Shown: piece by piece, positions 20,351 to 29,444 of the stretch
How the letters are laid out: each line of letters starts with the position of its first letter
Position numbering within the stretch: the first letter of the stretch is position 1
Assembly (NCBI GenBank): GCA_027491785.1
Contig: JAOZGJ010000017.1
Location: forward strand, 1-37,936
Length of the DNA: 37,936 nt
Direction of reading: 5' to 3'
DNA from: Thermoproteota archaeon
GTDB taxonomy: Archaea; Korarchaeota; Korarchaeia; Korarchaeales; Korarchaeaceae
Program-made: the position numbers and the translations under genes
Notes under the pieces: model-generated
Databases searched by the model: none
The model's input: only the letters and a program-made list of their open reading frames with translations
Told to the model about the DNA's origin: nothing

Positions 20351-20662
20351 CTATTCTAGGTTCAGGATCTCTAGGATCCTTGATTCACCTTCATCCATTA
20401 TAGCTGCAGCTGAGACAAAGAAAGGCTTCTTAAAAGCTCTTCCCATATCTATAGATTTGCCTGGGTATTGATAGAGGGGCACACCAGCAACCTTAGCTAG
20501 ATACTCTATCTCCATCTTGATGCTTTCCGGTGCATTGCTGGCTACTATTATGAGCTTTGGATTATTGCCAGATTTCAGCTGTTTTATTACTTTTTTAGCT
20601 CCTAACAATATGCTTCCGGATTTCAAAGCGAGATAAAGTTCGGGATCTATTTCACTGCTCAT
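20351..20662 (-). CDS. rpl30e: 50S ribosomal protein L30e (eL30)
   Basis: The 103-residue protein has the L7Ae/L30e RNA-binding fold: ALKSGSILLGAKKVIKQLKSG, PKLIIVASNAPESIKMEIEYLAKVAGVPLYQYPG and SIDMGRAFKKPFFVSAAAIMDEGES. eL30 binds kink-turns in rRNA. I start at ATG 20662 with AGGGTGA eight bases upstream; an in-frame ATG at 20683 lies deeper in rpoA without a ribosome-binding site. It overlaps the rpoA end by 11 bases. Placement between the RNA polymerase genes and nusA is the standard archaeal order. Confidence 0.94.
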   Translation of the reverse strand: MSSEIDPELYLALKSGSILLGAKKVIKQLKSGNNPKLIIVASNAPESIKMEIEYLAKVAGVPLYQYPGKSIDMGRAFKKPFFVSAAAIMDEGESRILEILNLE

Positions 20663-23600
20663 CGGTTCCTTCACCCTTACCATAATGCTTACTCAGGTCC
20701 CACCTAACGGAGACCCTTCCAGTTCCTATAGGTGGGGTCTGACCCATTATTAATGCATCTAATGGACCAGCTATAGGATTATCCTCACCGCGCCTAGCGG
20801 TATTTAATATGACATGGGTGGTCCATTCGAATGCCATCTTGCTGAGGGGAGTTTTCATTTCACTGAAGAATCCAGAAGATACACCTGCTGCTTGAAGTCT
20901 TATGGCCTCTATGGTTCCGGAGAACGTCATAGTATCTGCGATCAGAGATATGTACCTCTTGTCCACTTCAAGTCCCTGCTCGTCCAAGATCCTAGCTAGC
21001 TCCTTATATATACAATTTCTGGCGGCTTCTATTCCCAGAACCTTCTCTATCTCCTTACAATCATTAGTTATCGTCTTAGATACATCAACACAATCTAGGT
21101 TTAGCACTTCCCTTAGATTGGAACCGGAAGTCCTTACGACATACTCCTTCTTTCCATCGACCTCTACTGTTTCTATCCACGCCCTCTTTATGCCTTTCAT
21201 TCCAGATACGAGCTTGTCTAACACCCTATAAGACCACGATCTTAGAGTTTGGAGGGGTTTTTCTCTTTTAGCTGCTTCGAATAACTCTACAACGATGTTA
21301 TCTCCTTCGATGCTGACCTCTCCCTTCATGTTCTTGACTGCGCTCCTAATGTAGCCAACGAACTTATCCATCGTTATCAAATTTGTATTGAGGGCCTTCA
21401 TATCAGGCTTCAGAATGAGCCTGTAACCGAAGTTATCTATCGCGTATTCCTCTATTAGATCCCTAACTCTAAGCTCCCTTATACTTCTGATAACCTTTCT
21501 CACCTTCATCTCATCATCCATACATTCTGGTTTGAGATGTATCTCCATGGTGGGCGTGCTCGTTGAGGCATAGAATACCAGTTCCTTAAATCTCTCCACT
21601 CCATGGGTTACATCAAGGGCGAGGAGTCCTGGAGCATGGAAAGTCCTTAGAACCATCTGGGTTGTCGGTTCAGCTATGCTTTGGGCACTTATGAGGCCTA
21701 TAGGAGTTAATACCTCCACTTTAGCATTATCAAAACCCTCTTTCAGATCTTCTATTATCTTCTGAAGTTCTGGTTCCCTAGGTTTGGCTTTATATATCTT
21801 ATCAGCCAGACTTAACGGTAAACCAGCTTTCCTTAATGCCTCCTCTATCCTAGCTTTGGAGATCCCTCTCTTCCTAGCATTCTTCACATGCTTTTCTAGG
21901 ATCATCTCCACGTTGACTGGTTCGCCCCTGAAAAGCTTAGTTGGATCGAACCCATCCCCTCCAAATCTGAATTGGATTATATGACCCATAGAGTCTCTGA
22001 CGGTTTCATCGTATGATACATAAACGTCTTTAAGAGAATTGGCCACTCTTCTATAGAAATAGCCACTATCTTCTGTTCTCCTTCCCTTATCTATGAGAGA
22101 CTCTCTACTAGACATTGCATGGAAGATGAATTCCGCCGGATTCAGTCCCTTCATATAGCTATTTCTTACAAACCCCCTTGCCTCAGGACTTAGATCTCCT
22201 CTTTCGAAGTATGAGAGGACCCTGTCTCTATATCCCTTCCTAGGTCTTCCGCTGGTTAGAACGAATCCGATCCTAGTCTTGATCTTTTGCTGACCCACTT
22301 GGCCCATTATCTGGGAGAGGTTGGCTATTGATCCCCTAGCACCAGTCTTAGCCATCACAGAGACATTGGATTTGGGATCAACGTACTTAGCCACTATATC
22401 GCTCACTTTACTCCAGAAACTATCTATTGTCTGGACTATATCAAACTCAAGCATTTGCTCTTCTCTCATTAGGCGAAGTAGCTCTTCCTTTGTTCTATAT
22501 ACGGCCGCCTTCCTTGTGATTGGTCTGCTTTCAATGATCTTCCTCACTTCCTCCTCAAGCTTTGAGTATATACCATCTATCTCCTTGTACGCTTCCTTAG
22601 GCATCATAAGCTCTTTAGGTGAGGTAGTGATGCCATACAGCAATACTTCCTTGGCCGCTATCTTAAGGAGCTTATTCAGGAAATCTGCTGCTACATCACC
22701 CCCATAATCCCTGATTAGCACGTCTATTATGGTGAGCTTTCCTTTGACGAGAGTTCCAACTATGTCGTCATCCAATACTCCAGACAATAGCTGACCATTT
22801 CTTATCAGGACATATCCATCGTTAGGGCATGATGGATCGACACATTCAGCACCCTTAGCCAGTTTAGAAACGGATTCGAAGTTCAAGTCCTCAGGCAAGA
22901 GGACAGATATGAGCTGCTTCCCTGTCCATAACTCCTTCGGTTTCTTTATTGCTGGTTCGGGTAGCTTCGTTATCTCTGCCCTAGAGAGGATCCTAGTTGC
23001 CTCTGATTTTGTGAAAAGGGAATCCTTCTTTGTTATCATATAAAGGACGGTAATGAGATCCTGTCTCGCTCCTACTATGGATCCTCCCGTTCTAGGCGAG
23101 AGCATGTTATTCTTGACGCCCATTAACTCCTTAGCTTCTATAGACCCGTCTAACAGCTGAGGAGCATGTAAATTCATCTCATCTCCATCAAAATCTGCAT
23201 TATATGGAACACAAACTGCTGGATGGAGCCTGAAAGTAGCCCCCGGTAGTACCTTCACCCTATGGCCAAGCATAGATAGCTTATGGAGGGACGGCTGCCT
23301 GTTGAATATGACATAATCTCCGTCCATAAGGTGCCTTTCTACTACATCGCCCGGCTCGAGCTGCTCAGCTATCTCCTTCAAAGCATCTTTTCCCTTTCTC
23401 TGTATTATTTTTAGGCTTATGGGAGTTATCCCGCCTTTCCTTACCGTATTAGCTCCAGGATATTCATCAGGTCCTCTCATGACTAGCTCCTTTAACTTCT
23501 CTATGTTATTCTCGTTCACATACTCCGGAACTGTGAGCACCATGGCTATCTCGACTGGTACACCAACTTCATCTATGTCTATCATAGGATCGGGAGAAAT

Positions 23601-24629
23601 TACAGTCCTACTGGAGAAATTAACCCTCTTTCCTATCAAATTCTTCCTAAGTCTTCCCTCCTTACCGCCCAGCCTCTGGAACAAGGACTTAAGAGGTCTC
23701 CTCGTACCTTTCTGAGTAGCTACAGGCATGCTAGCAGCAGCATTATTGAAAAATACGCTAACCCAGTATTGCAGTAGGTCCCATTCGCTCTCTACCATGC
23801 TACTGGGAGCTCCAAGCCTTTTTGAGTTGTGTAGCTTCCTATTCACCTTTAGTATCTCTACTAAAATGTGAGTTAGATCATCCTCAGACCTCTCACCAGT
23901 CTCTAAATATATTGAGGGCCTAACAGGAAGCGGAGGTACCAAGAGAACTGTAAGTACCGTCCATTCAGGTCTGGCCCTCTCTGGATTAAATCCTATTAGG
24001 AGAGAATCATCGTCACTTACCCTCTCAAGTATATCTCTTATCTCAGTCGGCCAGAGCCTCCTAGGTTCAGGTTCCCTCACTATAAATTTGTATACCTCTT
24101 CTAGCTCAACTTTCTGTATATCAGCACCGCAGTGAGGGCATTTCCTATGCTTCTTAACGTACTTCTTCACCTCTTCCCTGACTTCCCTGACAAGACTATC
24201 ATCTATTTTCTTATCAGGATTCTTAGCTGCAGCTTCCTTAGCTCTAGCTATAAACTCGGATCTAACGTCTTCAGGTAAGAGAACCTTTCCACACTTATGG
24301 CATACGGTATTCAAGGCATCCTTCAGTCTCTTGACATATCCTATATGGACTACAGGCATGGCTAGCTCTACCCTACCAAAGTGGCCAGGACAATTCTTTG
24401 GATAGTTACCACAAATTGGACACCTCTTCCTGGGATTTATGGTTCCTAGCCTTGGATCTAGAACACCTCCTTGTATTGGGAGACCGCCTTCATCGTAGGC
24501 CGTTGGCTCTGTTATCTCTATAAAGCCTATCCTCCTTGCGTCCGATGGCGATATTAGGCCAAACATGACCCTCCTTAAACTGTAGGGAATGGCTTCCTCG
24601 TCTCTAACAGGCTCCCATATAAGCGCCAT
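20652..24629 (-). CDS. rpoA: DNA-directed RNA polymerase subunit A, unsplit (Rpo1N + Rpo1C)
   Basis: This 1325-residue chain joins the regions that most Euryarchaeota and Crenarchaeota encode as separate A' and A''. The N-terminal clamp has the Zn motif CPICGNYPKNCPGHFG and a second site (CHKCGKVL ... CPHCGA). The catalytic loop NADFDGDEMN at about residue 477 carries the three Mg-binding Asp residues. The bridge helix region at about 840 reads HAMSSRESLIDKGRRTEDSGYFYRR, against a near-universal HAMGGREGLxDTAVxTAxxGYxxRR. The trigger-loop base at about 983 reads AQSIAEPTTQMVLRTFH, against AQSIGEPxTQMxxxTFH; the key Leu, Arg and His remain. The frame is intact and all neighbours are standard, so this is the cell's working subunit. 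The start has GGGGATGATC upstream; RpoB ends 21 bases before it. Confidence 0.97.
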   Translation of the reverse strand: MALIWEPVRDEEAIPYSLRRVMFGLISPSDARRIGFIEITEPTAYDEGGLPIQGGVLDPRLGTINPRKRCPICGNYPKNCPGHFGRVELAMPVVHIGYVKRLKDALNTVCHKCGKVLLPEDVRSEFIARAKEAAAKNPDKKIDDSLVREVREEVKKYVKKHRKCPHCGADIQKVELEEVYKFIVREPEPRRLWPTEIRDILERVSDDDSLLIGFNPERARPEWTVLTVLLVPPLPVRPSIYLETGERSEDDLTHILVEILKVNRKLHNSKRLGAPSSMVESEWDLLQYWVSVFFNNAAASMPVATQKGTRRPLKSLFQRLGGKEGRLRKNLIGKRVNFSSRTVISPDPMIDIDEVGVPVEIAMVLTVPEYVNENNIEKLKELVMRGPDEYPGANTVRKGGITPISLKIIQRKGKDALKEIAEQLEPGDVVERHLMDGDYVIFNRQPSLHKLSMLGHRVKVLPGATFRLHPAVCVPYNADFDGDEMNLHAPQLLDGSIEAKELMGVKNNMLSPRTGGSIVGARQDLITVLYMITKKDSLFTKSEATRILSRAEITKLPEPAIKKPKELWTGKQLISVLLPEDLNFESVSKLAKGAECVDPSCPNDGYVLIRNGQLLSGVLDDDIVGTLVKGKLTIIDVLIRDYGGDVAADFLNKLLKIAAKEVLLYGITTSPKELMMPKEAYKEIDGIYSKLEEEVRKIIESRPITRKAAVYRTKEELLRLMREEQMLEFDIVQTIDSFWSKVSDIVAKYVDPKSNVSVMAKTGARGSIANLSQIMGQVGQQKIKTRIGFVLTSGRPRKGYRDRVLSYFERGDLSPEARGFVRNSYMKGLNPAEFIFHAMSSRESLIDKGRRTEDSGYFYRRVANSLKDVYVSYDETVRDSMGHIIQFRFGGDGFDPTKLFRGEPVNVEMILEKHVKNARKRGISKARIEEALRKAGLPLSLADKIYKAKPREPELQKIIEDLKEGFDNAKVEVLTPIGLISAQSIAEPTTQMVLRTFHAPGLLALDVTHGVERFKELVFYASTSTPTMEIHLKPECMDDEMKVRKVIRSIRELRVRDLIEEYAIDNFGYRLILKPDMKALNTNLITMDKFVGYIRSAVKNMKGEVSIEGDNIVVELFEAAKREKPLQTLRSWSYRVLDKLVSGMKGIKRAWIETVEVDGKKEYVVRTSGSNLREVLNLDCVDVSKTITNDCKEIEKVLGIEAARNCIYKELARILDEQGLEVDKRYISLIADTMTFSGTIEAIRLQAAGVSSGFFSEMKTPLSKMAFEWTTHVILNTARRGEDNPIAGPLDALIMGQTPPIGTGRVSVRWDLSKHYGKGEGTDEQ

Positions 24630-24650
24630 GAGATCATCCCCCGTTTCCCC

Positions 24651-27600
24651 TTATACCTCCTCCTTCACATCCAGTCTCACATCTACGTGCCCGCTCACGA
24701 GCTCATCTAAGAAAAGCTTCGAGGCATGACTCGTTATCAAGGGCTTTACCTCAACGGAAGATTGGCATCTTGGGCAGAAGAACTCGTTTGTCTTCTGATT
24801 AAAGAAAGCTACGGTCCCACAGTTCTTACATACGTAGATTATCGTTTTATCTGATTGCTCTACATATCTATCCCTTATGACAGAAGCAGCTCCATGGGAA
24901 ATCAGGACCTCCCCTTCCATCTCGCCTAGTCTTAGGCCACCACCCCTAGCTCTTCCCTCTACCGGCTGCCTCGTAAGCAGTTGCATCTGACCTCTAGCTC
25001 TCGCATGTATCTTATCTCTCACCATGTGCTTAAGCCTTTGATAGTAGCTCACACCTATGAATATGGGAGCCTTAATCATCCTCCCAGTTCTCCCATCGTA
25101 CATTATCTCCTCGCCGCTGTATTCGAATCCTAGCTTCTTTAGAGCCTCCATCAGATCTTCTACTGGTTCAGACATGAAAGGAGTTCCATCAACGAACCTT
25201 CCCTCAAGGGCTCCGACCTTTCCTGCCAAAATCTCATAGAGCTGGCCTATCGTCATCCTAGATGGTATCGCATGGGGATCCAGTACTATGTCAGGCACGA
25301 TGCCATCGGAAGTGAAGGGCATATCTTCTTGTCTGTATATCATTCCAAGGACACCTTTTTGCCCATGCCTAGTTGCAAACTTATCTCCAAGCTCAGGTGG
25401 TCTAGTATCCCTGACCTTAACTCTTACCAGTTTCTCTCCTCCAGTCTTTGTAGCTAGGAGTACATCTGAAATAACTCCCCTTTCCCAGGCCCTCATTGAA
25501 ATAGAAGTATCCCTTCTCTCGAATGTATACTGATAACCTCCCCCAATGGAGAGCTCTGGGGAGAACCTTGGTGGGCTAGTTTTGCCTATTAGTACATCTC
25601 CACCTTCAACATAAGTCTCCGGATCTACAATACCATCTTCTCCCAATTTCTGGTAATACTGCTCTTCCTTCTTACCTGAGACCTTCTTTAGAGGTAATGG
25701 ATTCTCAAACTTATCCCCTTCTATTATGGCCTGTCTCCTTGCCTCAGTTTCGTAAGTCCTGAAGAAAACCGCCCTTGCAGCGCCCCTATCTATCGAGCCC
25801 TTTGACATGACCAAGGCGTCATCCATATTATAGCCGTCCATCGGTATCAAAGCCACAACCAAGTTCTGGCCCGATGGTCTGTAATCATAGCCAGTTATTT
25901 CGGCTCCTCTTGTCCTTACTATTGGTCTCTGTGGATAAAACATGAGGAATGCTCTGCTATCAAACCTAAGCCTCCAATTGGCTATATACTCCCCTAAACC
26001 TTGCCTCACCATGTTAGCTCCTATAATGTCCCTCGGTATATTGTTATGCTCGGCATAAGGTATTTGAAGAGCAGCCACGCCGAACATCGCGTAGGGAGCG
26101 AAGTCCAGATGAGTATGTTTCCCATTGAGTTCGCTTAAGCTGTAAGCTATAACTGCGGATTCTTCCTCATCCACATCCAATAACTCCACAATTCCCTGCT
26201 TTACTAGGTCAGAAAAGCTTATATTACCGGCTTCTATATCAGGAAGGAGCTTTATGGCCATATCTATCTTATCTACCGGTATTAAGGGTCTTCTCATCCT
26301 TCCTGCATCAGCATTAATGTAGATCGAATTATCCTCCCTATTGTATACGAAATTAACTTCAGGGCTCATATTTGGCCTATTCTCCTTAAGATAAGAGATT
26401 AGATCATCAGGTCTATCTGTAAAAGCTATGAGCTTTCCATTAACATATATCGGAACAAGGCTTCCGACCTCCTTAGGGCTTGCTTGGGCTGCAGGCTTAG
26501 CTCCCCATTCTAGGATGAGCTCTATTATCGGTTCTGGATCTGTTCCGAAAGTTACATCAGTAAAAGCAGCTAAACTCCTGACAAGACCCACATTAGTTCC
26601 CTCAGGAGTTTCCAATGGGCATAATCTACCTATAGAAGTTCCATGTATCTGTCTAGCCTCATGAAGGGGCAATCCAGCGGGTAGAGGGGAGTTAACCCTC
26701 CTCAGGTGGTGCAGTGTCGCTATGTAATTCGTCCTCTCCAAGTTCTGGCTTACTCCCAGATCCCCTCCTGGCCAAGCTCCTGTTGCGACTGCCCTTAATA
26801 TGCGCTGAGTTATCATTTTCTGACTCATTAAAATTCTCCTGACATCTAGATCGTATACTCCACTGCTAAGCTGCTCATCCGCCTTTTCCTTAAGTCTCCT
26901 CACGAGCTGATAAAAAGCATCCCTGAAGACTTCCTGCATCAAAGTTCCTGCAAGCCTTAATCTCTTATTGGAGAAATGATCCTTATCGTCTGGGTCTACC
27001 TTCCCCCTAACTACTTTAAGCAGCTTCTCTATCATCTTAGCGAGGAAATACGCCTTGACTATGTTATCCTCCTCGCTATTTCCTATGTGAGGCAGTAGGT
27101 TATTTTTCAAATACTCTTTAGCGTATCTGATTCTATCGGGCTTTGGAACTGCCTGAACAAGCCTCCTTCCTATGTAGTCCAAAGCCTCCTCCCTAGTGAG
27201 CATTCCAAGGGTTCCTTCTTCCTCTGCCCTTCTCTGGACATCATCTAAGCTGTAAAGGAACTCGTTCCTTATCTCATCATCGTTTGATATGGCATTGACT
27301 ATATCCTCGTCCCTCTCTAAGCCAAGGGCCTTGAGGAGCATGGCAACGGGGACTCCCCTTATAGCTCCAGTCGATGCTTTTATGGTTCCATCCCTCGTAT
27401 AATACTCCAGGTAAAGCCTTGTTCTGAGCCCCGCCTTCGCTGATACTATTTGAGCCACATGAGAGTAGGGTTTATTTTCCGCAGTGGTCTGCTCTACTAT
27501 TACCTTGTTTGGAGCCAAATCATCTCTTATTACAAGCACCCTTTCAGATCCGTTGATGATGAAATAACCTCCTGGATCTCTAGGATCCTCCCCCTTCTCG

Positions 27601-28019
27601 ATGAGCCTCTTCTCATCGAGCCCATATAGATAGCATCCTTTAGACTTCACCATTATGGGTATGTGCCCTATCCTGATCCTCTCGCTCTTTAGCTCCATGC
27701 CGCCTGAATAGATCTTTACCTCGAGCTCTATAGGAGCTAGGTAATTGGCATTCCTAAGCCTTATCTCATTGGGCATCGCAGGTAGAGAGGATCCATCGTA
27801 TTCCTCGACCTCTGGCCTGCCCACATATACCTTGCTCAATACAAGTTTATAGTTCTCTACAAGCTCTAATTCCTTAAAAGCATCTACAACCTCCTGTATT
27901 CCCATTTCCAGAAACCTATTGAAGGATTCTATTTGGACATCCGAGAGCTTCCGCTCTCGAAAATACGCCTTGACTATGGGATAAAAATCAACATTTAAAC
28001 CATCTTTCTGGATTGACAC
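24651..28019 (-). CDS. rpoB: DNA-directed RNA polymerase subunit B, unsplit (Rpo2)
   Basis: The 1122-residue subunit covers all of Rpb2: lobe and protrusion (GYFIINGSERVLV, fork region LCPLETPEGTNVGLV), hybrid-binding domain (GDKFATRHGQKG with its active-site Lys residues) and clamp Zn ribbon (CKNCG ... CPRCQSS). It is one chain, unlike the split B'/B'' of some methanogens. Two conserved catalytic-face motifs differ: YNMEDA is YNMDDA (the Glu corresponds to yeast Rpb2 Glu836, the Asp is kept), and RxGEMERDC is RLGEMEGEV. Both were checked at codon level. GTG 28019 is the start; AGGTGG lies upstream. RpoH ends 29 bases before. Confidence 0.97.
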   Translation of the reverse strand: MSIQKDGLNVDFYPIVKAYFRERKLSDVQIESFNRFLEMGIQEVVDAFKELELVENYKLVLSKVYVGRPEVEEYDGSSLPAMPNEIRLRNANYLAPIELEVKIYSGGMELKSERIRIGHIPIMVKSKGCYLYGLDEKRLIEKGEDPRDPGGYFIINGSERVLVIRDDLAPNKVIVEQTTAENKPYSHVAQIVSAKAGLRTRLYLEYYTRDGTIKASTGAIRGVPVAMLLKALGLERDEDIVNAISNDDEIRNEFLYSLDDVQRRAEEEGTLGMLTREEALDYIGRRLVQAVPKPDRIRYAKEYLKNNLLPHIGNSEEDNIVKAYFLAKMIEKLLKVVRGKVDPDDKDHFSNKRLRLAGTLMQEVFRDAFYQLVRRLKEKADEQLSSGVYDLDVRRILMSQKMITQRILRAVATGAWPGGDLGVSQNLERTNYIATLHHLRRVNSPLPAGLPLHEARQIHGTSIGRLCPLETPEGTNVGLVRSLAAFTDVTFGTDPEPIIELILEWGAKPAAQASPKEVGSLVPIYVNGKLIAFTDRPDDLISYLKENRPNMSPEVNFVYNREDNSIYINADAGRMRRPLIPVDKIDMAIKLLPDIEAGNISFSDLVKQGIVELLDVDEEESAVIAYSLSELNGKHTHLDFAPYAMFGVAALQIPYAEHNNIPRDIIGANMVRQGLGEYIANWRLRFDSRAFLMFYPQRPIVRTRGAEITGYDYRPSGQNLVVALIPMDGYNMDDALVMSKGSIDRGAARAVFFRTYETEARRQAIIEGDKFENPLPLKKVSGKKEEQYYQKLGEDGIVDPETYVEGGDVLIGKTSPPRFSPELSIGGGYQYTFERRDTSISMRAWERGVISDVLLATKTGGEKLVRVKVRDTRPPELGDKFATRHGQKGVLGMIYRQEDMPFTSDGIVPDIVLDPHAIPSRMTIGQLYEILAGKVGALEGRFVDGTPFMSEPVEDLMEALKKLGFEYSGEEIMYDGRTGRMIKAPIFIGVSYYQRLKHMVRDKIHARARGQMQLLTRQPVEGRARGGGLRLGEMEGEVLISHGAASVIRDRYVEQSDKTIIYVCKNCGTVAFFNQKTNEFFCPRCQSSVEVKPLITSHASKLFLDELVSGHVDVRLDVKEEV

Positions 28020-28048: not shown

Positions 28049-28468
28049 TCAAGAACTTCTCAAACTAACGACTCTTCTGTAGTAATAGCCCTCTTCACGA
28101 TGTATCCTAATGATATCTCCCTCCTTAGCCCCTATCTTCTCTACTATAGGATCTGTGATGAGTATCATGGGAAAATAATCTAGTGAACCATATTTCTTCA
28201 CCAGCCACTCTTTTTCCTCATCACTTATTAACTCATGCTTAGGAACCATGAAGTTTTCGGTTGGATCATATTTCATTACCCTCTTGACCTTTCTGGTACC
28301 CTTTTTCTGAGCCTTCTTAGTGGCCTTTGATTTCTTGGTGATCTTCCGCTTTCTCTCCTTACCAGTAGCTCCTTTACTCTTACCTCTAACACCCCTCTTC
28401 TTACCTTTAGATGAAGAGGATTCCGGCTTTAGGTCTGAATCAACAGGAACATCATCAAGCTCTACCAA
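28049..28468 (-). CDS. rpoH: RNA polymerase subunit H (Rpo5) with long basic N-terminal extension
   Basis: The last 75 or so residues match archaeal Rpo5: MVPKHELISDEEKEWLVKKYG, LDYFPMILITDPIVEKIGAKEGDIIRIHR and GYYYRRVV. Rpo5 forms part of the downstream jaw. Archaeal Rpo5 is usually 75-90 residues; this one has 139, with an N-terminal tail of about 65 residues that is acidic/Ser-rich first and then strongly Lys/Arg-rich with little order. The start is TTG 28468, with GGGGGTGC at good spacing. A shorter start at ATG inside (KRVMKYDP) is possible but lacks a ribosome-binding site. It is the first gene of the rpoH-to-S7 string and shares a promoter with the divergent gamma-subunit gene. Confidence 0.92.
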   Translation of the reverse strand: MVELDDVPVDSDLKPESSSSKGKKRGVRGKSKGATGKERKRKITKKSKATKKAQKKGTRKVKRVMKYDPTENFMVPKHELISDEEKEWLVKKYGSLDYFPMILITDPIVEKIGAKEGDIIRIHREEGYYYRRVVSLRSS

Positions 28469-29198: not shown

Positions 29199-29444
29199 TT
29201 ATACCTGCTCTTCTCCCTCTATGAACGAATCAAAAAATCTCGTATATACATCTACTTTAGTTTCACCTGGTAGAAGATCCATCTCCTTCACTAAACCGCA
29301 GTTAAAGCATTTTATTATGGCCTTACCTTCTTTCTCGTGGAGCTCTACCATAATAGAGTTATGCTGGCATACTGGACATCTAAAGAAGGCAGATTTCCTT
29401 CTCCTCCTTATAGGTAAGGTTGTCCTTCTCTTCCTCCTTCCCAA
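29199..29444 (-). CDS. elf1: Elf1-family transcription elongation factor (zinc ribbon)
   Basis: The 81-residue protein has a basic N-terminus (MGRRKRRTTLPIRRRRK), then a Zn ribbon with Cys23-x2-Cys26 and Cys46-x2-Cys49, and the VDVYTRFFDSF ending of Elf1 proteins. Eukaryotic Elf1 travels with RNA polymerase II; the archaeal form is found in TACK and Asgard lineages and is presumed to act on elongation too. The start is TTG 29444 with AGGTG upstream. It is divergent from polC and shares a TATA element, and convergent with the gamma-subunit gene. It lies just beyond the rpoH end of the polymerase string. Confidence 0.88.
   Translation of the reverse strand: MGRRKRRTTLPIRRRRKSAFFRCPVCQHNSIMVELHEKEGKAIIKCFNCGLVKEMDLLPGETKVDVYTRFFDSFIEGEEQV

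What the first reader, a model, noticed from the sequence alone, without database searches (positions are those of the whole stretch)
20652..28019. RNA polymerase large subunits depart from near-universal catalytic motifs in four places
Seen: subunit A has HAMSSRESLIDKGRRTE where almost all cellular polymerases have HAMGGREGLxDTAV (bridge helix), and QSIAEPTTQM where QSIGEPxTQM is expected (trigger-loop base). Subunit B has YNMDDA for YNMEDA (a residue facing metal B in yeast Rpb2) and GEMEGEV for GEMERDC. I re-read the codons at all four sites. NADFDGD, the trigger-loop Leu/Arg/His and the B active-site GQKG remain. The genes are full length in a normal operon, so this is a working enzyme. 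Inference: correlated change on both sides of the active site suggests altered elongation kinetics or a compensating factor (Elf1 lies nearby, and Rpo5 is extended).
Basis: partly seen in the sequence, partly recalled or inferred. Interest (0 to 1): 0.7.

Follow-up and report, generated by a model that had tools for sequence, protein, structure and literature searches.

The report
Korarchaeal RNA polymerase lacking glycine hinges
In one whole family of heat-loving archaea, the cell's only RNA-making enzyme has lost five of the six glycine and proline residues that act as hinges in its moving parts, including a triple loss whose alanine version kills yeast, yet the gene is strictly maintained, so something else in the enzyme must compensate.

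Summary
The residues are really there (codons re-read). They are not special to this genome: all 19 complete Rpo1 sequences of the window's family carry them, including a 1,590,757-base one-contig genome that I take to be Korarchaeum cryptofilum. [quoted passage not shown] Relatives in the same order, class and phylum carry partial sets, so the changes accumulated stepwise.

The mapped bridge-helix/trigger-loop hinges H1-H4 rest on six Gly/Pro residues; this family keeps one (AGESSS), while 70 of 73 other archaea keep four or more. Also unnoticed were FHAPG in the trigger-loop linker and a conserved 8-residue insert (IGFVLTSG) in the F loop.

Several replacements equal studied mutants: G823S and A1076T are error-prone yeast alleles, and Q817K is superactive in Methanocaldococcus. 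I read this as hinge loss balanced by activating changes; the compensation is inferred. Elf1, the Rpo5 extension and absence of TFS do not explain it. The two Rpo2 sites are not enriched above that subunit's background. Some reduced-genome archaea lost H3/H4 too. It is a new variant of a known kind.

The parts
20652..24629 (-). rpo1, unsplit A'+A'' subunit, 1325 aa
   Evidence: PF04998 match E 6.4e-64; PDB matches to archaeal Rpo1N/Rpo1C
24651..28019 (-). rpo2 (subunit B), 1122 aa, GTG start
   Evidence: PDB match to archaeal Rpo2 over 11-1121
22032..22136 (-). bridge helix, Rpo1 832-866
   Evidence: alignment
22098..22112 (-). hinges H3/H4: SSRES in place of GGREG (Sc G819S, G820S, G823S; Mj G809S, G810S, G813S)
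   Evidence: codons; conservation; hinge score; hinge definition PMC3533926
22080..22088 (-). K848-G849-R850 (Mj Q817K, A818G, V819R); Q817K superactive in M. jannaschii, V819K likewise
   Evidence: PMC2988716
21672..21674 (-). hinge H1: A986 in place of Gly (Sc G1073A)
21663..21665 (-). T989 (Sc A1076T, Mj A'' G72): same change as a fast, error-prone yeast allele
   Evidence: PMC5127505; PMC4168980
21630..21635 (-). A999-P1000 (FHAPG; Sc F1086A, A1087P) in the trigger-loop Ala-Gly linker
   Evidence: PMC5127505
21594..21602 (-). hinge H2: G-V-E in place of G-L/V-P (Sc P1099E; G1097 kept)
   Evidence: PMC2776397, PMC3533926
22248..22271 (-). family-specific 8-aa insert (I/V/L)GFVLTSG, Rpo1 787-794, in the F loop
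   Evidence: F-loop position from PMC7565877
20874..20891 (-). family-specific 6-aa insert, Rpo1 1247-1252, in the motif I recall as switch 1
   Evidence: switch-1 identity from memory
25821..25823 (-). Rpo2 D733 (Sc Rpb2 E836, metal B neighbour); D734 (Sc D837) is kept
   Evidence: PMC3533926
24906..24914 (-). Rpo2 G1036-E1037-V1038 (GEMEGEV in place of GEMERDC)
23181..23201 (-). catalytic NADFDGD, intact
28049..28468 (-). rpo5 with Lys-rich N-terminal extension (genus-level, variable)
29199..29444 (-). Elf1-like zinc-ribbon gene

Best explanation
This is the single, working RNA polymerase of the Korarchaeum family. Its bridge helix and trigger loop have lost the Gly/Pro residues that define hinges H1 to H4 elsewhere (five of six lost). 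Shown: the substitutions, their fixation in the family, their graded appearance in relatives, strong purifying selection, and a conserved family-specific F-loop insert. Inferred from mutants in other species: the hinge losses alone would slow or disable the nucleotide addition cycle. They are offset within Rpo1 by substitutions of the activating class (Mj Q817K, V819R; Sc A1076T), by a new glycine in the middle of the bridge helix (Mj A818G) that moves its flexible point inward, and by the F-loop insert, which lies where the F loop caps the bridge-helix N-terminus and the trigger-loop tip. The net effect would be a re-tuned cycle, most likely near-normal speed with altered fidelity or pausing, rather than a crippled enzyme.
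For: Fixation: all 19 complete family Rpo1. Purifying selection: bridge helix plus trigger loop 40-47 synonymous versus 0-5 nonsynonymous differences from four genus members.

Hinge score (H1 G1073; H2 G1097, P1099; H3 G819, G820; H4 G823): family 1/6; order relative 3/6; class and phylum relatives 4/6; 70 of 73 other archaea 4/6 or more.

Mutant data. M. jannaschii: any residue but Gly at G809 or G810 severely reduces activity (PMC2988716); Q817K and V819K are superactive. Yeast: G1073A very slow; G819A and G820A slow; GGREGL to AAREAL lethal; GVP to AVA fast (PMC3533926); A1087/G1088 linker changes almost all lethal or severe; most F1086 and P1099 variants loss-of-function; A1076T faster (PMC5127505); G823S and A1076T recovered among eight alleles of an infidelity screen (PMC4168980). 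Gain- and loss-of-function alleles of bridge helix and trigger loop suppress each other in yeast.

Order of change: K817 with A809 in the phylum relatives, G818 and FHTPG in class and order relatives, A1073 in the order relative, the rest in the family.

F-loop insert GFVLTSG conserved in the family, absent from the other phylum genomes and at least 95% of 74 outgroup archaea.
Against: No biochemistry on this enzyme exists here. Mutant phenotypes come from single changes in other backgrounds, mostly Ala rather than Ser or Glu, and disagree at P1099 (fast in PMC3533926, mostly loss-of-function in PMC5127505). Yeast hinge effects looked additive, not synergistic. The link between G810 loss and K817 across archaea is strong in raw counts (31 of 33 versus 13 of 68 distinct sequences), but there are only four inferred losses, two on a K817 background and one with K817 arising on the same branch; the independent-pairs test has no power. 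All family-level changes sit on one long stem branch, so their order there is unknown. The structure model was too poor to use.
Confidence: 0.55

Rival explanations
1. Neutral drift: the whole RNAP evolved fast on the korarchaeal stem and these positions changed with the rest, without functional re-tuning.
For: Rpo1 and Rpo2 are 1.50 and 1.34 times as far from a balanced outgroup as its members are from each other, more than any member (maximum 1.19 and 1.18). Many conserved columns outside the active site changed too (20/242 at 90%) and Rpo2 active-site motifs are not enriched.
Against: The new residues are themselves frozen over saturated synonymous divergence. At 90% conservation, bridge helix plus trigger loop change about three times as often as other columns (post hoc). 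S7, S12 and NusA are not accelerated (1.04, 1.11, 0.91); EF-2 is 1.38, but the sister genomes are 1.32-1.36 for it, so little of that is family-specific.
Confidence: 0.25
2. Adaptation to heat: replacing Gly by Ser, Ala or Glu stiffens helices at high temperature.
For: Five of six hinge Gly/Pro became residues of higher helix propensity; summed helix penalty at the N-terminal hinge falls from 2.85 to 1.85 on the Pace-Scholtz scale as I remember it.
Against: The hyperthermophile M. jannaschii has the glycines and needs them; the Thermococcales and Desulfurococcales sequences here keep the motifs. G818 goes the other way. Total bridge-helix penalty barely changes (12.18 to 11.83).
Confidence: 0.1
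3. An external factor compensates: Elf1, the extended Rpo5, or an intrinsic-cleavage adaptation to missing TFS.
For: Elf1 lies nearby and Rpo5 is extended in the genus. Cyanobacteria, which lack Gre, use bridge-helix and trigger-loop changes to raise cleavage (PMC7026648).
Against: TFS is present in 25 of 29 phylum genomes, with the catalytic D-E kept. Elf1 occurs across archaeal groups with normal motifs. The Rpo5 extension is absent from genus g3 of the same family and variable in the genus.
Confidence: 0.05
4. Assembly or sequencing error.
For: None beyond the oddity itself; the window's genome has 114 contigs and 7% contamination.
Against: Identical residues in 19 family genomes, one of them a single contig; open frames throughout.
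Confidence: 0.005

Closest known systems
Nanoarchaeum equitans RNA polymerase and related Woese-/Pacearchaeota enzymes (Nottebaum and Weinzierl 2021, PMC8204694)
   Same: Natural archaeal RNAP with radical substitutions in bridge helix, trigger loop and metal-B motif, active when reconstituted.
   Different: N. equitans has a bridge-helix proline and a metal-B Glu to Gln; here there is no bridge-helix proline, metal-B Glu is Asp, and the change is loss of hinge Gly/Pro plus an F-loop insert. The Korarchaeum family is not DPANN; its genomes are 0.7-2.9 Mb as assembled.
M. jannaschii bridge-helix/trigger-loop mutants (Tan 2008, PMC2776397; Weinzierl 2010, PMC2988716)
   Same: Same positions: G809, G810, G813, Q817, V819, A'' G72, I98.
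   Different: Single laboratory mutants; here about a dozen changes are combined in a natural wild-type enzyme.
Yeast Pol II hinge, fidelity and trigger-loop alleles (PMC3533926, PMC4168980, PMC5127505)
   Same: G823S, G1073A and A1076T occur here as the natural state; P1099 is lost as in AVA.
   Different: In yeast they impair fidelity or rate, and the triple H3/H4 change (to Ala) is lethal; here three Ser occur at those positions.
DPANN phylum of genome G045 (about 1 Mb genomes)
   Same: H3/H4 also lost at all three Gly (HQMSQRKAL), with K817.
   Different: Trigger-loop H2 is kept (GLP) and the F-loop insert is absent.

Membership tests
Archaeal/eukaryotic-type multisubunit RNA polymerase | Rpo1 with NADFDGD and family-level similarity | tested here: met
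   NADFDGD at 23181-23201; PF04998 E 6.4e-64; best PDB hits archaeal Rpo1N/Rpo2
Archaeal/eukaryotic-type multisubunit RNA polymerase | Trigger-loop substrate residues Q1078, L1081, H1085 and Rpo2 metal-B D837 | tested here: met
   Q991, L994, H998 and Rpo2 D734
Archaeal/eukaryotic-type multisubunit RNA polymerase | Gly/Pro of hinges H1-H4 (usual, not strictly defining) | tested here: not met
   1 of 6 kept; the enzyme is still a member by the other features
N. equitans-type divergent active site | Proline in the bridge helix | tested here: not met
   No Pro in Rpo1 833-866
N. equitans-type divergent active site | Metal-B Glu replaced by Gln | tested here: not met
   Asp at Rpo2 733
N. equitans-type divergent active site | Divergent fork loop 3 | not tested
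   Fork loop 3 was not mapped in Rpo2
Cyanobacterial-type RNAP adapted to absence of cleavage factor | No Gre/TFS factor in the genome | tested here: not met
   TFS in G000 and 25 of 29 phylum genomes, D-E intact
Cyanobacterial-type RNAP adapted to absence of cleavage factor | High intrinsic transcript hydrolysis | not testable with these tools
   Needs purified enzyme

The most novel reading that the evidence does not exclude
Probability: 0.22. Interest if true: 0.8.

Novelty: new variant of a known kind. Interest (0 to 1): 0.52.

Why it matters
[quoted passage not shown] A whole archaeal family that has lost five of six, with part-way states in its relatives, is a natural experiment. It names the substitutions and one insert that may compensate, and each can be tested by swapping residues in reconstitutable archaeal enzymes. 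It also warns against treating these motifs as invariant.

Tried and rejected
- Loss of TFS as the cause: TFS is present and looks intact.
- Rpo5 extension or Elf1 as compensator: distributions do not match.
- Acceleration confined to RNAP: first suggested by S7, S12 and NusA, weakened by EF-2 (1.38 times). Measured against the sister phylum genomes, Rpo1 is about 1.33, Rpo2 about 1.19 and EF-2 about 1.04.
- K817 as a required precondition for losing G810: strong raw association, only four inferred losses. Left as suggestive.
- AlphaFold model of Rpo1 301-1325 from 22 sequences: mean pLDDT 61.5, below 50 in bridge helix and trigger loop. Not used, no fold search run.
- Rfam search of the window: nothing. 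Phage tblastn: only distant RNAP.
- One alignment call failed through wrong strands and was repeated.
Full report
WHAT IS THERE. The minus strand of the window carries rpo5, rpo2, rpo1, an L30e-like gene, a NusA-like gene, rps12 and rps7 in the usual archaeal order. Rpo1 is unsplit (1325 aa) and is the only copy in the genome. NADFDGD, the trigger-loop Q/L/H residues and the metal-B Asp of Rpo2 (Sc D837) are intact. Positions are given in yeast Pol II (Sc) or M. jannaschii (Mj) numbering, anchored on Mj T821/Sc T831 = residue 852 and Sc H1085 = residue 998.

WHO HAS IT. The window's genome has 15 genus-mates, 8 other family members, one order relative, one class relative and three phylum relatives in the held set. 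G010, one contig of 1,590,757 bases, matches the size I remember for Candidatus Korarchaeum cryptofilum, so I take the genus to be Korarchaeum; the handles themselves are unnamed. All 19 complete family Rpo1 sequences carry SSRES (TSRES in two), DKGRRTE, SIAEP, FHAPG and GVERFKEL. The order relative has AGRDS, DKGLRTAE, SVAEP, FHTPG and a normal GLPRL. The class relative has AGRET, DKGLRTAE, SIGEP, FHTPG. The phylum relatives have AGRES, K817, A818 and SIGEP. In Rpo2, Sc E836 is D in the family, K in the order relative, E in the class relative and H in the phylum relatives; GEMERDC is GEMEGEV, GEMEEEV, GEMEKEA and GEMEKDA or unchanged. The set is therefore typical of one lineage and built up stepwise.

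IS IT MAINTAINED. Between the window and four genus members, synonymous sites are saturated while dN is 0.06-0.15. In bridge helix plus trigger loop there are 40-47 synonymous and 0-5 nonsynonymous differences. The new residues are held by strong purifying selection.

HOW RARE. Against 74 non-redundant archaeal Rpo1 sequences, Mj G809 is Gly in only 52, G813 in 58, and 817 is Lys in 8, so those are not near-universal. Mj G810 (71), Sc G1073 (67; Ala nowhere), Sc A1087 (70) and Sc P1099 (71) are. Of columns at least 90% conserved, 9 of 34 in bridge helix plus trigger loop changed in the family against 20 of 242 elsewhere (Fisher p=0.004), but I chose the region after seeing the finding, and at 97% it is 1 of 20 against 10 of 143. 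The Rpo2 active-site segments are not enriched. Some reduced-genome archaea lost G810 as well: Ala or Ser in a clade around G034, Gln in the phylum of G045 where all three H3/H4 glycines are gone, and Ser in the very long-branched L184.

THE PATTERN. Kireeva and co-workers defined hinges H1 (Sc G1073 region), H2 (G1097, P1099), H3 (G819, G820) and H4 (G823) (PMC3533926). Scored on these six residues, the family keeps one (AGESSS). The order relative keeps three, the class and phylum relatives four. Of 73 other archaea 70 keep four or more; the exceptions are L184 (0), L186 (2) and L197 (3). In M. jannaschii any residue but Gly at G809 or G810 severely reduces activity (PMC2988716). In yeast G1073A is very slow, and changing all three H3/H4 glycines to Ala is lethal. 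Sc A1087, here Pro, lies in a linker where nearly every change is lethal or severe, and most variants at F1086 and P1099 are loss-of-function (PMC5127505). Other changes are of the opposite class. Mj Q817K is superactive and V819K is too, here K817 and R819. Sc A1076T gives faster elongation, and A1076T and G823S were both recovered as error-prone alleles in a yeast screen (PMC4168980). Within the trigger-loop pocket, T1080V, L1101F, I837F and L841V are also changed. Gain- and loss-of-function alleles of bridge helix and trigger loop can suppress each other.

A CANDIDATE COMPENSATOR IN RPO1. The family has a conserved 8-residue insert, (I/V/L)GFVLTSG, at Rpo1 787-794, absent from the other five phylum genomes and from at least 95% of outgroup sequences. 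It falls in the central F loop (human RPB1 790-800, PMC7565877; I map this to yeast 767-777 with an offset of 23 from memory). [quoted passage not shown] A second insert at 1247-1252 is in the motif I recall as switch 1.

MECHANISM PROPOSED. The N-terminal bridge-helix hinge is stiffened, with its summed helix penalty falling from 2.85 to 1.85 (scale values from memory), while a glycine at Mj 818 introduces flexibility in the centre, next to a region that simulations already found labile. Activating changes and the F-loop insert offset the loss. The phylogeny fits in part: K817 and G818 are present in relatives that still have G810. Across archaea, 31 of 33 distinct bridge helices without G810 have K817 against 13 of 68 with G810, but these reduce to four inferred losses, two on a K817 background and one with K817 arising on the same branch, so this is only suggestive. 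All steps about kinetics are inference.

ALTERNATIVES. Drift with general acceleration remains possible. Rpo1 and Rpo2 are the most divergent of all taxa compared, and EF-2 is also somewhat divergent. Heat adaptation fails to explain why other hyperthermophiles keep the glycines. External compensation by Elf1, Rpo5 or missing TFS is disfavoured. Error is excluded.

COMPARISON AND NOVELTY. The closest precedent is N. equitans RNAP, active despite radical active-site changes (PMC8204694); its defining changes (bridge-helix Pro, metal-B Gln) are not met here. Two full-text searches pairing Korarchaeum/Korarchaeota with RNA polymerase or bridge helix listed no title on the korarchaeal active site. 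This covers open-licence papers only, and I did not read all of them.

Noticed in passing
window 22248-22271 (Rpo1 787-794): Conserved 8-aa insert (I/V/L)GFVLTSG in the F loop, specific to the family.
   Followed up: partly
window 20874-20891 (Rpo1 1247-1252): Conserved 6-aa insert (consensus A-x-G-x-x-S) near the C-terminal motif I recall as switch 1, with R1245L, K1258M and A1265M around it, all family-specific.
   Followed up: no
window 28049-28468: Rpo5 has a 60-70 aa low-complexity N-terminal extension: Lys/Ser-rich in most of the genus, acidic in the K. cryptofilum group, absent in genus g3 (L131).
   Followed up: partly
L172 (G028) versus L208, L191: Within one phylum rpo1 is split into A' and A'' in G028 but unsplit in the others.
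   Followed up: no
L134, L140, L141, L099 (Rpo2): The metal-B Glu (Sc E836) is Lys in the order relative and His in phylum relatives, so this catalytic-site position drifts through the phylum.
   Followed up: partly
L184 (G043, about 0.5 Mb, 74% complete): An archaeal Rpo1 with none of the six hinge residues, also missing T821 and QSIGEP; very long branch, could be a strongly degenerate symbiont enzyme.
   Followed up: no
L254, L249, L257 and others (phylum of G045): Bridge helix HQMSQRKAL with all three N-terminal glycines lost, shared by many about 1 Mb genomes.
   Followed up: partly
L150-L161 (TFS): TFS in the genus has RAADE instead of RSADE at the catalytic hairpin; other family members keep RSADE.
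   Followed up: no
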